Shown here one piece after another: positions 43,829-50,028 of a stretch of 64,000 nucleotides of DNA (positions within the stretch are counted from its first letter, which is position 1; every line of letters begins with the position of its first letter). The DNA lies in the NCBI GenBank assembly GCA_017438635.1, contig JAFRUZ010000005.1, positions 1-64,000 of the forward strand. The letters are read 5' to 3'. Source of the stretch: Bacilli bacterium. GTDB lineage: Bacteria; Bacillota_I; Bacilli_A; RF39; UBA660. The translations under genes were made by a program, and so were the position numbers. A model generated the notes under the pieces. That model was not told the origin of the DNA and ran no database searches. It saw only the letters and a list, made by a program, of their open reading frames with translations.

Positions 43829-44404
43829 ATGAAAGAAGAAATAATAAAAACATATGATAAAGCAAGTAATGATTATGGATATAATAGTAACTCATTACAC
43901 AAATTAGGATTAGATGCTAGAAAATTAGAAGAAGCAGCAACTAAACAAATTTTAGAAGTCTTAAGCTTAACTAATTATGATGTTATATATACAAGCGGTA
44001 ATGCAGAAAGTTATACTACTCTTGTAAATAATATAAAGGGAAGTATTTTAACAGATAATAAAGAAATATTAGAAATATGTAAAGAAAAAAACATAGATAT
44101 AAGAAACAAAGATAATGTAGATAAAAATACATTTATATCAGTAGAAGATGAAAACTTTTATAATGGTAAAGTTGATCACATAAATATAGATTTAAATAAA
44201 AAATATAGTGACCTAAACAAATATGATTTTATAACTATTGAAGATGATATTCCTTTCTTTGGAATACTTATAAAAAAGAAAAATATAGACTTAAAAAATC
44301 TAATTCATGGTGGAAAGAGCACGACTAAATATAGAAGTGGTACTAGTGTCACACCACTAATAGCAAGTTTTGCAAAACTAGTTAAATTAAAGTATAAAAA
44401 ATAG
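43829..44404 (+). CDS. shrunken cysteine desulfurase-like protein without PLP lysine
   Basis: Residues 18-60 match the start of NifS/IscS enzymes (NSNSLHKLGLDARKLEEAA, then DVIYTSGNAESYTTLV). Residues 140-180 match their C-terminal part (FFGILIKKKNIDLKNLIHGG, then KYRSGTSVTPLIASFAK), including the IHGG...RSGT substrate loop. The 191-residue length is half that of a desulfurase (about 390). The central PLP region, with the conserved His, Asp and the SxHK lysine, is missing or replaced by FITIEDDIPFFG. PLP chemistry is therefore not expected. It has a good ribosome site (aagaggtg) and intact frame, so it is probably expressed. Confidence 0.75.
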   Translation: MKEEIIKTYDKASNDYGYNSNSLHKLGLDARKLEEAATKQILEVLSLTNYDVIYTSGNAESYTTLVNNIKGSILTDNKEILEICKEKNIDIRNKDNVDKNTFISVEDENFYNGKVDHINIDLNKKYSDLNKYDFITIEDDIPFFGILIKKKNIDLKNLIHGGKSTTKYRSGTSVTPLIASFAKLVKLKYKK

Positions 44405-45658: not shown

Positions 45659-46633
45659 ATGGAAGATAAAGAATATGAACAAACAATAAGGCCAAGGCTT
45701 ATTGATGAATACATTGGTCAAACTGAAGTAAAAGAAAACATGAAAGTATTTATTGAAGCCGCTAAAATAAGAGGTGAAGCACTAGATCATGTGCTTTTAT
45801 ATGGGCCTCCAGGATTAGGTAAAACAACTATGGCATACATAATAGCCAATGAACTTAACGTAAATATCAAAACTGCAAGTGGGCCTTCCATAGAAAAAAG
45901 TGGTGATCTTGCAGCAGTGCTTTCTTCACTTGAACCTGGAGATGTTTTGTTTATAGACGAAATTCACAGAATGCCTAGATTTATTGAAGAAATACTTTAT
46001 CCAGCCATGGAAGATTTTACTTTAGATATAATCATAGGAACTGAAGGATCCACTAGAAATATAAAAATAGATCTTCCACCATTTACACTTGTTGGAGCAA
46101 CTACTAAAGCTGGCGATTTAACATCACCACTAAGAGATAGATTTGGAATAGTAAATAAACTTCAATACTATACAGAAGAAGAATTAACTAAGATAGTAAA
46201 AAGAACAAGTAAAGTATTAGAAACAGAAATAGATGATGAAGCTGCTAAAGAACTGGCAATACGTAGTAGAGGTACTCCAAGAATAGCTAATAAACTATTC
46301 CGAAGAGTAAGAGATTTTGCATTAGTTGAAGGTAAAAGTACTATTGATCTTGAAGTAACACAAAAAGCATTAGATAGATTAAAAATAGATAAAATAGGGC
46401 TTGATGAAACAGATAAAGAACTACTTTTAACAATTATAGAAAAGTTTAATGGTGGTCCTGTAGGAATAGATACATTAGCAACTTCTGTAGGAGAAGAAGT
46501 GTCAACTATTGAAGATATGTATGAACCATATTTAATTCAAATAGGAATGCTTAAAAGAACTTCAAGAGGAAGAATAGCTACACCAAAAGCATATGAGTAT
46601 TTTAAGAAAACAAAACAAGGGACATTATTATGA
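45659..46633 (+). CDS. ruvB: Holliday junction DNA helicase RuvB
   Basis: The 324-residue AAA+ motor drives branch migration. Motifs: [12 protein letters not shown], Walker [15 protein letters not shown], Walker [11 protein letters not shown], the sensor 1 VGATTKAG, the arginine finger PLRDRFGIV, and the C-terminal winged helix ([19 protein letters not shown]). The ribosome site aaggagg overlaps the tdk end. The next gene begins in the ruvB stop (ATGA). Confidence 0.97.
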
Positions 46634-47268
46634 AAATAGAAATAAATGGTATAGTATATCCTATTGAAATAACATATAAAAACAATAAGAATATGTATCT
46701 TAGGATTAAAGATGGTCCAAGAATAGAAATAACTGCTCCAATGAGAACACCAAGTAGAACTATAAATAAGTTTATAGAAGAAAACATTGATCATATAGCA
46801 AAAAATGTTATAAAAAAAGAGCAATTAAAGAATAAAAAAAGTGGTAAATTTGAGTATTTAGGGCACTATTATGATATTCTATATACCGGTAAATATGGAA
46901 TAACATTAACAGATACAGTAGCATACATAGGACAAAATACAAATATTGATAATTGGTACAAAAAAGAAGCAAAAGAAATGTTTAAAGAGTATTATGATGA
47001 ATGTTTTAAATATTTTAGAGAAGCAAATCTAAAACCAGATTTAAAAATAAGAAAGATGAAGAGCAAATGGGGAGTTTGTAATGTAACAAATAATACAATA
47101 ACTCTAAATCAAGAACTAATAAAGCTAGAACCTGCTTGCTTAGAGTATGTAATATTTCACGAACTATCCCATTTGAAACATCCAAATCATTCAAAAGATT
47201 TTTGGAGTCTTGTAGAAAAGTATGTTCCAAATTATAAACAAATAAGAAAAAGCATGAAGAATGTGTAA
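46630..47268 (+). CDS. YgjP/SprT-like zinc metallopeptidase domain protein
   Basis: The 212-residue protein matches the YgjP (DUF45) family. The N-terminal half has [20 protein letters not shown]; the C-terminal half has [10 protein letters not shown], then [12 protein letters not shown] and the zinc motif [19 protein letters not shown] (HExxH type with a further His). It is probably a metal-dependent peptidase or a nuclease-associated domain; substrates are unknown. Four-base overlap with ruvB suggests shared expression. Confidence 0.88.
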
Positions 47269-47279
47269 GGAGAAATAAT

Positions 47280-48287
47280 ATGAAATTAAAAGAACTATTG
47301 ATATCTTTAGGATATACAGAAGAAGATTATGAAATAATAAGAAATGCTTTCCCTATGTCAACTCTCAAAGAAGAAACTTTATATAAAAATGTTAAAAGAA
47401 ATTATGATTTTTTAATATCATTAGGCTATAGTAAAGAAGAAATAATCAAAATGACTAAGAATTCTCCTCAAATATATGCCTACTCGGTAGAAAATATTAA
47501 ACAAAAGTTAGAAGACATGATATCATTAGGCTATAGTAAAGAAGAAGTAATCAAAATGACTAAGAGTGTTCATCATATATATAGCAACTCGATAGAAAAT
47601 ATTAAACAAAAACTAGAAGACATGATATTGTTAGGTTACAGTAAAGAAGAAGTAATCAAAATGACGAAAATCCTTCCTCAAATATATGGCATATCAATAG
47701 AAAATATTAAACAAAAGCTAGAAGACATGATATTGTTAGGTTACAGTAAAGAAGAAGTAATTAAAATGACTAAGAATAAACCAGCAATATATAGTTACTC
47801 GATAGAAAATATTAAACAAAAACTAGAAGACATGATAGCGTTAGGATACAGCAAGGAAGAAGCAATCCAAATGACAAAGAGTCTTCCGTCAATATATAGC
47901 ATATCGATAGAAAATATTAAACAAAAACTAGAACACATAGTATTGTTAGGTTATAGCAAAGAAGAAGCAATCCAAATGACGAAGAGTCTTCCTCAGATAT
48001 ATGGCTACTCAATAGAAAATATTAAACAAAAGATAGATTTTTATGATTCAATCAACATGCATGATTTAGCGGTAATTCATCCAAAACTGTTAATGCAAAG
48101 TACAGCTTTAAGTTACGCTAGATATATGTTTTATAAAGAAAAAGGAATTGACATTAACATGGACAATTATATAAAACTATTTATGAACAGTAAAAAATTT
48201 GAAAAACAATATGGACTAACTAAAGAAGAATTGCTGAAAAAAAATGACAATAACAAAACATTAGAAGAGAGAGGAATAGCAAAGTGA
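47280..48287 (+). CDS. mTERF-like helical repeat protein (335 aa)
   Basis: Six exact-length 35-residue units (residues 42-251) share the pattern LEDMIxLGYSKEEVIKMTK, then xxPxIYxxSIENIKQK, with a diverged unit before (KELLISLGYTEEDY) and partial ones after. The pattern hydrophobic-LG-[YF]-S-x-E-x-[VI] with a Pro-hydrophobic turn and a following S-x-E-x-[IL] helix is that of the mTERF motif, known from eukaryotic organelle nucleic-acid-binding proteins that form a left-handed superhelix. DNA or RNA binding here is inference. It lies 11 bases after the YgjP gene and overlaps the next gene by four bases. Confidence 0.75.
   Translation: MKLKELLISLGYTEEDYEIIRNAFPMSTLKEETLYKNVKRNYDFLISLGYSKEEIIKMTKNSPQIYAYSVENIKQKLEDMISLGYSKEEVIKMTKSVHHIYSNSIENIKQKLEDMILLGYSKEEVIKMTKILPQIYGISIENIKQKLEDMILLGYSKEEVIKMTKNKPAIYSYSIENIKQKLEDMIALGYSKEEAIQMTKSLPSIYSISIENIKQKLEHIVLLGYSKEEAIQMTKSLPQIYGYSIENIKQKIDFYDSINMHDLAVIHPKLLMQSTALSYARYMFYKEKGIDINMDNYIKLFMNSKKFEKQYGLTKEELLKKNDNNKTLEERGIAK
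47403..48032 (+). repeat. six in-frame 105-bp tandem repeats
   Basis: Six units of exactly 105 bases encode the 35-residue repeats. Units are highly similar in DNA (shared core atagaaaatattaaacaa at each unit end), so they arose by recent tandem duplication and may vary in number between strains. Confidence 0.9.
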
Positions 48288-48679
48288 TAGAATTATATAA
48301 TCTCGGAATAAGTGAAGAAACAATAAAAAATATGTTAGAAGTTGAGCCAAGTATAAAAGAGTTGTCAAAAAAAGAAATAAAAGAAAAAATAGTATTATTA
48401 CAAGAACTAAATTGTTCTAATAATCAAATATTATGTATAATAAGCAGCAATCCACAATATTTAAATAAGACAAAAAATGAGATAATAGAATTAATTAAAA
48501 CACTATCAGATTATGGTTTTACACCATTGAATATACTATTTGATTCCAATCCATATATATTAAACTTGGAACCATCTGAAATAAACAATTATATAGAAAA
48601 CAGAAAGAATAATGGTGAATCTTTAGAAGATATTATAGATGATTTAGATTCCAATCCATATCTATTTAGTGAAATGTAA
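48284..48679 (+). CDS. second mTERF-like protein (131 aa)
   Basis: Three diverged units with the same motif: LYNLGISEETIKNMLEVEP, then LLQELNCSNNQILCIISSNP and LSDYGFTPLNILFDSNP, each followed by a short [YI]-hydrophobic stretch and a helix (LSKKEIKEKI, KTKNEIIELI, LEPSEINNYI). The order helix-turn-Pro-helix matches mTERF repeats more closely than the upstream array does. It overlaps the 335-residue gene by four bases (ATGA type GTGATAG), so both are co-translated. Function unknown. Confidence 0.7.
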   Translation: MIELYNLGISEETIKNMLEVEPSIKELSKKEIKEKIVLLQELNCSNNQILCIISSNPQYLNKTKNEIIELIKTLSDYGFTPLNILFDSNPYILNLEPSEINNYIENRKNNGESLEDIIDDLDSNPYLFSEM

Positions 48680-48820
48680 AAGTCTAAAAAATAAATAAGG
48701 TAGACAATAAAATAAAACAAGATAAAATGCATCTAATAAACAAAGCTAAAAAATTAAAATGAGTTTGCTTTATATTTATAAGTGCTATAATAAATGAGAA
48801 TTCATATAGAGGTGATTAAC

Positions 48821-49294
48821 ATGTCTAATATAAAAAAAGAATTAACTTCATTTGAAGAATACATTAAAATAAACATGAAAGCTATAAAAATGAGAAATAT
48901 AAAACACAAGTATTACTCTGAAATAGCAAGTCATGATTATGATGATTATACAGTAGAAGAATTTTTAACTTTATGCAAGATTAATAGAATGGAAGAACTT
49001 GGAGTAATTAATGAATCAGTTTCGAGTAAATTAAAAGAACTAATTGATATAAAAATGCAAGTTGATGATTTAATTGGAGAAGAAGCTAGAAAAGTTTTAT
49101 ACTATAATTCGAGTGCTCCTAATTATTTAAAAGATCTTCATAAAATGTCTGAAGCAATTAACAACAAACTAAAAAAATATCATTTAACTATGGGTGATAT
49201 TAGTTTTGTAGATATGCTAGATGCTACTATAAAAGTAGAAAATAACAAAGAGTATACAAAAGATCAAAACGTCAGAACAAAAAGAATTGATTAG
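48821..49294 (+). CDS. hypothetical protein (157 aa)
   Basis: A soluble, mostly helical, charged protein (MSNIKKELTSFEEYIKINMK shown in part) with no signal or membrane segment. I do not recognise the family. The ATG at 48821 follows the ribosome site agaggtgat; upstream in-frame starts lack one. A promoter-like TATAAT (48786-48791) precedes it. It ends 8 bases before the RNA methyltransferase gene, so co-expression is likely. Confidence 0.6.
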   Translation: MSNIKKELTSFEEYIKINMKAIKMRNIKHKYYSEIASHDYDDYTVEEFLTLCKINRMEELGVINESVSSKLKELIDIKMQVDDLIGEEARKVLYYNSSAPNYLKDLHKMSEAINNKLKKYHLTMGDISFVDMLDATIKVENNKEYTKDQNVRTKRID

Positions 49295-49302
49295 GAGGTA
49301 CT

Positions 49303-50028
49303 ATGTTGATAACTAGTGTTGACAATAAAAAAATAAAAGACATTGTAAAATTAAAACAAAAAAAATATAGAGATTCTGAAAACAAATTCATCATAGAAAC
49401 AGAAAACTTAATAAAAGAAGCTTATATTGAAGGAGCACTTGAAGAAGTATATATCTTAGAGAATGAAAAATTATCTTTTGATATAGATTGTCCTATCTAT
49501 TATGTATCAGAATCTGTAATGAACAAAATAAAAGATATAAAAACATCTAAATATCTTGGAATATGTGCAAAAAAAGATAGTAAAGAGTACATAGGAAAAA
49601 GATATTTAATGTTAGATAAAGTATCTGATCCAGGTAATCTTGGTACAATAATAAGAAGCGCAGTAGCATTTAACATAGATACACTTATACTATCAGAGGA
49701 TTCTTGTGATGCATATAACGATAAAACCATAAGAGCTACTGAAGGAGCATTATTTAGATTAAACATTATTAGAGAACCTTTGGAAGAATCACTAAATAAT
49801 TTACAAAAACTAAACATTAATATATATGGTACTGATGTAATAAAAGGAGATAGCGTAAATACCGTAAATAAAGAAAATTTCTGTATCATCATGGGTAATG
49901 AAGGTTCTGGAATAAGTGATAAAGTTAAAAAAAGAATAAATAACTATATTCACTTAGATACAAATAATGTAGAAAGCCTCAATGTAGCGGTAGCTACTAG
50001 TATTATTCTATATGAATTAGACAAATAG
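49303..50028 (+). CDS. TrmH/SpoU-family RNA 2'-O-methyltransferase
   Basis: The 241-residue protein has an N-terminal substrate-binding domain (KLKQKKYRDSENKFIIE) and a SPOUT domain with the deep-knot motifs: motif 1 DPGNLGTIIRSAVAF, motif 2 IIMGNEGSGISD and motif 3 HLDTNNVESLNVAVATSIILYE. It should methylate a ribose in rRNA or tRNA using SAM; the site is not predictable. Ribosome site ttaggagg. Confidence 0.93.
   Translation: MLITSVDNKKIKDIVKLKQKKYRDSENKFIIETENLIKEAYIEGALEEVYILENEKLSFDIDCPIYYVSESVMNKIKDIKTSKYLGICAKKDSKEYIGKRYLMLDKVSDPGNLGTIIRSAVAFNIDTLILSEDSCDAYNDKTIRATEGALFRLNIIREPLEESLNNLQKLNINIYGTDVIKGDSVNTVNKENFCIIMGNEGSGISDKVKKRINNYIHLDTNNVESLNVAVATSIILYELDK

What the first reader, a model, noticed from the sequence alone, without database searches (positions are those of the whole stretch)
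47280..48679. Two co-translated bacterial mTERF-like repeat proteins
Two adjacent genes overlapping by four bases encode helical repeats with the mTERF pattern. The first has six near-identical 35-residue units; the second has three diverged ones. mTERF proteins are best known from eukaryotic organelles, where they bind nucleic acids to control transcription, translation or ribosome assembly. A tandem, recently amplified bacterial version next to ruvAB-type DNA repair genes would be unusual and might be a programmable or scaffold-type nucleic-acid binder.
Basis: partly seen in the sequence, partly recalled or inferred. Interest (0 to 1): 0.78.

Follow-up and report, generated by a model that had tools for sequence, protein, structure and literature searches.

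The report
Bacterial mTERF (pTERF) DNA-binder cassette
A gut bacterium carries a recently acquired pair of genes for a DNA-binding repeat protein of the kind otherwise known from mitochondria and chloroplasts, whose repeats differ mainly at the residues that would read the DNA, plus a small acidic partner; such proteins were shown in 2024 to bind specific DNA sequences, but the partner and the multi-gene arrays appear undescribed.

Summary
Window 47280-48287 (335 aa) holds six 35-residue units; 48284-48679 (131 aa) overlaps it by four bases. Both match Pfam mTERF (E 4.7e-33 and 3.7e-11). Both AlphaFold models (mean pLDDT 92) have human MTERF1, MTERF3 and MTERF4 as best solved-structure matches. 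The ruvAB link is incidental: four congeners have the same locus without the cassette. Bacterial mTERF proteins are not new: Hu et al. 2024 (PMC11417379) named them pTERF and showed sequence-specific DNA binding for two.

What I add: (1) sampled mTERF genes in this phylum fall in one family of uncultured gut Bacilli, patchily present; (2) the long, basic gene (median pI 8.9) recurs with a conserved acidic partner (pI 4.5), one partner plus one to about fifteen long genes; (3) among near-identical repeats, amino-acid change concentrates at positions 20, 21, 23, 26 and 27; 20 and 23 correspond to MTERF1 base-reading residues R162, R202 and R350; (4) in one set of same-site orthologues these positions are fully conserved.

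Most likely a horizontally gained, sequence-specific DNA-binding roadblock or regulator with an acidic modulator. The partner's function and the native target are inferred.

The parts
47280..48287 (+). Long mTERF/pTERF-type tandem repeat protein, 335 aa, pI 8.5
   Evidence: ORF; PF02536 E=4.7e-33; AlphaFold2 mean pLDDT 91.9; Foldseek best matches MTERF1 with TM about 0.64-0.66, and MTERF3 with target TM 0.72
47280..47402 (+). N-terminal cap of the long protein (residues 1-41)
   Evidence: Conserved start in alignments A1 and A4; helices in the model
47403..48032 (+). Six 35-aa / 105-bp repeat units (residues 42-251). Variable positions in each unit: 20, 21, 23, 26, 27
   Evidence: TRF 5.9 x 105 bp; unit register; variability
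48033..48254 (+). C-terminal cap (PKLLMQSTALSYARY...LFMNSKKFEKQYG). Conserved in the family and aligned with the C-terminal segment of human MTERF1
   Evidence: Invariant L271, R281, L300, F307 in A1; aligned to MTERF1 in the profile search
48284..48679 (+). Short acidic mTERF-like partner protein, 131 aa, pI 4.3, GTG start, 4-base overlap with the long gene
   Evidence: ORF; PF02536 E=3.7e-11; conserved family A2/A5; model mean pLDDT 91.9 with mTERF best matches
48284..48287 (+). GTGA start/stop overlap, suggests translational coupling
   Evidence: Sequence; overlaps of 1 to 17 bases recur in relatives
46630..47268 (+). YgjP-like metallopeptidase gene, left flank of the insertion (not part of the cassette)
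   Evidence: PF01863 E=2.4e-45; syntenic in four congeners
48794..50028 (+). Right flank: 166-aa ORF and a 241-aa ORF that reads as a TrmH-type RNA methyltransferase (family name from reading, not scanned). In congeners one of these follows YgjP directly
   Evidence: tblastn synteny in G001-G004

Best explanation
The window holds a horizontally gained pTERF cassette. The long protein is a left-handed mTERF superhelix that follows the major groove of double-stranded DNA. The residues around the turn proline of each 35-aa repeat (positions 20, 21 and 23, with 26 and 27) read bases, so the string of repeats sets the target sequence. Repeat duplication and divergence at those positions retarget it. 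The bound protein most likely acts as a roadblock or repressor/terminator on DNA, as MTERF1 does. The co-translated small acidic mTERF-like protein most likely binds the basic long protein and controls its loading on DNA, as a groove competitor, an end cap or a chaperone. Status of steps: fold, family, cassette, gain at this locus and the pattern of variable positions are shown here computationally; sequence-specific DNA binding is shown in the literature for two pTERFs, not for this protein; the roadblock role and the partner's role are inferred.
For: Family: PF02536; the homologue profile matches PDB MTERF1 at E=1.6e-23 over 275 columns including the C-terminal cap. Fold: the best solved-structure matches are MTERF1/3/4 and the ciliate mS93. 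DNA reading: in 72 pairs of repeats at least 80% identical in DNA, from 20 proteins, amino-acid-changing differences are most frequent at positions 20, 27, 23, 21, 26 (pN/pS about 0.8-1.2, overall 0.41; each in the top six in 84-99% of bootstraps). MTERF1 base-reading residues R162, R202, R350 and R251 (PMC4705650) fall at positions 20, 23, 23 and 31; permutation p=0.007 for 20/23/31 and 0.003 for 20/23. In three same-site orthologues (97-98.5% DNA identity) the five variable positions are 25/25 identical, while between paralogues they are about 28% identical against about 59% for the scaffold. pTERF1 binds ACTNNNAGTC with Kd 1.87 nM and pTERF2 binds another motif. Partner: 25 of the fetched loci hold both a long and a short gene, mostly directly adjacent. 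Gain: empty locus in four congeners.
Against: No DNA-binding data exist for this protein, and residues at positions 20 and 23 here are mostly small or polar (N, S, I / Q, H, A, S) rather than the arginines of MTERF1. Position 31 (R251 in MTERF1) is not hypervariable. pN/pS at the variable sites is about 1, so relaxed constraint cannot be told from positive selection. The profile also matches a designed 35-residue toroid (E about 5e-12), so sequence score alone does not prove common ancestry with eukaryotic mTERFs. Hu et al. report that the classical mTERF proline pattern was not seen in pTERF1, whereas P22 is 87% conserved here. Several long genes have no recognisable short partner. Groove electrostatics were not computed.
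Confidence: 0.7

Rival explanations
1. The long protein binds RNA (rRNA, tRNA or mRNA) rather than double-stranded DNA, like MTERF3/4 and several plant mTERFs, and acts in ribosome assembly or RNA processing.
For: MTERF3, MTERF4 and the ciliate mitoribosomal protein mS93 are among the best fold matches. Some cassettes adjoin RNA-related genes such as pheS, rnpA, RNase Y and a poly(A)/CCA polymerase.
Against: Both tested pTERFs bind specific double-stranded DNA motifs. Patchy presence and rapid turnover do not suit a core RNA function. Neighbours are not conserved.
Confidence: 0.15
2. A protein-binding scaffold: the variable surface recognises proteins, for example phage or host proteins, as designed and natural helical repeats do.
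For: Helical repeat scaffolds commonly bind proteins, and variable positions in a concave surface are also typical of ankyrin-type binders (general knowledge). Variable residues are not strongly basic.
Against: Variable positions coincide with MTERF1 base-reading positions. Long proteins are basic (median pI 8.9). Tested relatives bind DNA.
Confidence: 0.1
3. A selfish or decaying repeat gene with little function; the repeat amplification is neutral.
For: Patchy presence, absent in four congeners; A+T-rich tandem repeats expand easily (general knowledge).
Against: Overall pN/pS 0.41 among near-identical repeats, with the scaffold conserved. Same-site orthologues keep all variable positions. 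The two-gene arrangement recurs at many loci.
Confidence: 0.05

Closest known systems
pTERF (prokaryotic mTERF-like proteins; Hu et al. 2024, PMC11417379)
   Same: Tandem three-helix mTERF-type repeats, 3-11 units, found in metagenome-assembled mostly Bacillota genomes; different repeat arrays bind different DNA sequences
   Different: The main text describes no acidic partner gene, operon structure, multi-gene arrays, gain/loss or mapping of variable positions onto MTERF1 (terms absent). Direct sequence comparison with pTERF1 could not be made because its letters are not in the text held
Human MTERF1 (PDB 3MVA and mutants)
   Same: Predicted superhelix of mTERF motifs, conserved turn proline, C-terminal segment; variable positions match its base-reading residues
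   Different: Bacterial, no organelle, tandem near-identical 35-aa units, few arginines at the reading positions, paired with an acidic small protein
TAL effectors and the TALE-like protein BurrH
   Same: Modular repeats on a DNA superhelix with variable residues at the turn after a helix; weak Foldseek matches directly behind the mTERFs (BurrH with DNA E=1.7e-3; dHax3 E about 7e-3)
   Different: Low TM-scores (0.32-0.37), no sequence match in the solved-structure search up to E=10, three-helix rather than two-helix units, no secretion context seen; works alike at most, not a member

Membership tests
mTERF family (PF02536) | Significant match to the curated mTERF profile | tested here: met
   114.9 and 43.0 bits against a cut-off of 23.1; all 18 long and 19 short homologues match
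mTERF family (PF02536) | Repeats of about 30-35 aa with three helices and a conserved turn proline, stacked into an mTERF superhelix | tested here: met
   P22 87% conserved over 360 units; predicted three helices per unit; Foldseek best matches are mTERFs. Predicted, not solved
mTERF family (PF02536) | Binds nucleic acid | not testable with these tools
   Known for MTERF1/3 and two pTERFs; not assayed for this protein
mTERF family (PF02536) | Eukaryotic, nucleus-encoded, organelle-targeted (as the literature describes it) | tested here: not met
   Gene lies in a bacterial gene row. This is a statement of distribution rather than a defining property, already revised by the pTERF report
pTERF family (Hu et al. 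2024) | Tandem mTERF-annotated repeats, 3-11 units, in mostly Bacillota metagenome-assembled genomes | tested here: met
   Six units; genome 0.9 Mb in 18 contigs; named carriers of close relatives are uncultured Bacilli, Candidatus Onthousia and Candidatus Aphodocola
pTERF family (Hu et al. 2024) | Sequence homology to pTERF1/pTERF2 | not testable with these tools
   Sequences are not in the main text; supplements were not available
pTERF family (Hu et al. 2024) | Sequence-specific double-stranded DNA binding | not testable with these tools
   Shown for pTERF1 and pTERF2 only
TALE / TALE-like repeats | Homologous repeats with a di-residue specificity code | tested here: not met
   No sequence hit among solved structures at E<=10 and low TM-scores. 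Analogy only
TPR / SEL1-like repeats | Profile match to TPR or SEL1 families | tested here: not met
   None among the Pfam matches at E<=1 for either protein and none among the listed fold matches

The most novel reading that the evidence does not exclude
pTERF cassettes are an evolving repertoire of programmable DNA-targeting proteins in one family of gut Bacilli: one constant acidic partner serves a changing set of one to about fifteen long reader proteins, which are gained, lost and replaced between close relatives. They would silence or block specific DNA, perhaps of phages, plasmids or other mobile elements, without a nuclease, and the residues at positions 20/21/23/26/27 would form a readable code.
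Probability: 0.15. Interest if true: 0.9.

Novelty: new variant of a known kind. Interest (0 to 1): 0.6.

Why it matters
Reviews still describe mTERF proteins as eukaryotic, and one experimental paper found DNA-binding bacterial ones. This work turns a handful of proteins into a lineage-wide system with a constant acidic partner, arrays, turnover between close relatives, and a short list of positions predicted to set DNA specificity. That makes a code for mTERF-type DNA recognition directly testable from natural variation: many near-identical repeats differ mainly at the proposed reading positions. If the partner controls DNA loading, it could also serve as a switch for engineered pTERF tools.

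Tried and rejected
Link to ruvAB repair: rejected; the locus is empty of the cassette in four congeners and neighbours differ elsewhere. Secondary Pfam hits (RuvA_C, UBA and others): no separate domain; they cover short pieces of the repeat, no single stretch passes on its own, and mTERF outscores them. Phage or plasmid origin: no match of the long protein in 50,697 phage or 72,556 plasmid records; no relative of the long or short protein confirmed in viral contigs. Known defence system: no convincing PADLOC match. RNA element: no Rfam match in 46000-50000. Own promoter or terminator: scan not above shuffled background, so no claim. Insertion mechanism: no target-site repeat could be recognised at the junctions. 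An ~125-aa neighbour of the long gene in L051/L059 was tested as a hidden partner: no Pfam match.

Full report
OBSERVATION. The long gene (47280-48287, 335 aa) and the short gene (48284-48679, 131 aa) overlap by GTGA. The long gene contains 5.9 copies of a 105-bp unit, the only strong tandem array of the window. Pfam mTERF matches both at E=4.7e-33 and 3.7e-11. The repeats inflate the first score, but the short protein has no recent repeats and still matches well.

WHAT IT IS. A profile built from 18 homologues matches human MTERF1 in the PDB at E=1.6e-23, from the first repeats through the C-terminal cap, and also MTERF3, MTERF4 and the ciliate mitoribosomal protein mS93. A profile of the short family matches the same proteins. 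AlphaFold2 models of both (mean pLDDT 91.9 each) have MTERF1, MTERF3 and MTERF4 as best solved-structure matches. One caution: a designed 35-residue toroid also scores E about 5e-12 by sequence, so common ancestry with eukaryotic mTERFs is likely but not proven.

DISTRIBUTION. PF02536 was found in 53 of 385 genomes of the order (41 above the curated cut-off), in 3 of 395 of the class and in 2 of 392 of the phylum. All positives belong to the window's own family (the sets overlap). Named carriers of close relatives are uncultured Bacilli, some filed as Clostridia or Tenericutes, and Candidatus Onthousia and Aphodocola. Many copies lie at contig ends, so these counts are lower bounds. Within the genus only the window's genome has it, out of five, with three of the others over 90% complete.

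GAIN AT THIS LOCUS. In congeners G001 and G003 (RuvB 95-96% identical) the order is ruvB, YgjP-like, 166-aa ORF, trmH-like; in G002 and G004 it is ruvB, YgjP-like, trmH-like. None has the cassette there or elsewhere. One gain is simpler than several losses. No insertion-site repeat was recognised. The ruvAB neighbourhood therefore says nothing about function. Elsewhere cassettes sit beside pheS, rnhC, recO, recD2, rnpA, RNase Y and other housekeeping genes.

CASSETTE STRUCTURE. Across the fetched loci, a short acidic mTERF-like gene of about 125-145 aa repeatedly adjoins one or more long genes, often with overlaps of 1 to 17 bases; 25 loci hold both kinds. Arrangements seen include long-short, long-long-short, long-long-long-short, long-short-long and short-long. 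One genome (G865, Bacilli RGIG8542 from a water deer caecum, L100/L135-L137) carries 15 long genes and one short gene on three contigs that look like one broken array; joining them is inference. Not every long gene has a recognisable short partner. Long proteins have median pI 8.9 and short ones 4.5.

WHERE THE REPEATS VARY. Numbering the unit from LEDM (1) to K35, entropy over 360 units is highest at 20 and 23. Among near-identical repeats within one protein (72 pairs, 20 proteins), amino-acid-changing differences are most frequent at 20, 27, 23, 21 and 26 while the scaffold is conserved (overall pN/pS 0.41). In the MTERF1-DNA structure the motif prolines line the major groove, and R162, R202, R251, R350 and R387 contact bases (PMC4705650). 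By the proline register the first four are positions 20, 23, 31 and 23. The coincidence has permutation p of 0.003 to 0.007; position 31 is not hypervariable. Between paralogues the five variable positions are about 28% identical against about 59% for the scaffold. In three same-site orthologues they are all conserved (25 of 25), and in one more orthologous pair they are more conserved than the scaffold (74% against 64%). At that same site the neighbouring long gene has been replaced (73% DNA identity) next to a 97% identical one. This is what specificity-determining positions with a retained target per orthologue should look like. The pN/pS values near 1 do not separate relaxed constraint from positive selection.

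PRIOR ART. Hu et al. 2024 (PMC11417379) found pTERF1 in a ruminant gut genome, showed binding to ACTNNNAGTC with Kd 1.87 nM, found a different motif for pTERF2, and suggested reprogrammability. The window protein is very likely a pTERF; their sequences are not in the held text, so direct identity was not tested. The main text contains none of the terms operon, neighboring gene, gene cluster, acidic or horizontal, so the partner, arrays, gain/loss and position mapping seem new, as far as this library shows.

MECHANISM. Most likely the long protein wraps double-stranded DNA in the major groove and reads it through the turn residues of each repeat, acting as a roadblock, repressor or terminator. 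The acidic partner most likely controls loading. Binding to DNA is supported by relatives; the roadblock role and partner role are inference. A defence function is possible but has no direct support: no phage or plasmid copies, no PADLOC match, and housekeeping rather than defence-type neighbours where scanned.

VERDICT. A real, well-supported mTERF-type pair; an already-known protein kind (pTERF) in an apparently undescribed two-component, expandable cassette.

Noticed in passing
L035 3921-4358 (-) and 1356-3905 (-) (G000 contig C5); also L064, L073, L081, L063: The same genome has a third mTERF gene (145 aa) directly beside an 849-aa protein with an N-terminal HNH-type motif and tandem repeats. 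The pair recurs in G013, G236 and G255; a reverse search with the HNH part found it only in 4 of 288 order genomes, all mTERF carriers. Looks like a separate mTERF-plus-nuclease element.
   Followed up: partly
L161 / G255 contig C96 9244-11070: A further HNH protein of this kind with near-identical tandem repeats runs off the contig end; no mTERF gene is visible directly upstream in the piece read.
   Followed up: no
L135, L136, L137 (G865, Bacilli RGIG8542): Apparent array of 15 long mTERF genes plus one short gene on three contigs, 39 mTERF matches in one 1.5 Mb genome.
   Followed up: partly
window 48794-49294: 166-aa ORF after the cassette has a sub-threshold ArdA (antirestriction) match (E=0.0043, 18.1 bits against 27); present in two nearer congeners, absent at the syntenic place in two others.
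   Followed up: no
window 43829-44404: 191-aa ORF matching only the N-terminal part of class-V aminotransferases, possibly a truncated NifS-like gene.
   Followed up: no
L038 8014-8913 versus L042 7743-8639: Two genomes share a 97% identical long gene while the adjacent long gene at the same place is only 73% identical, suggesting replacement of single long genes within a cassette.
   Followed up: partly
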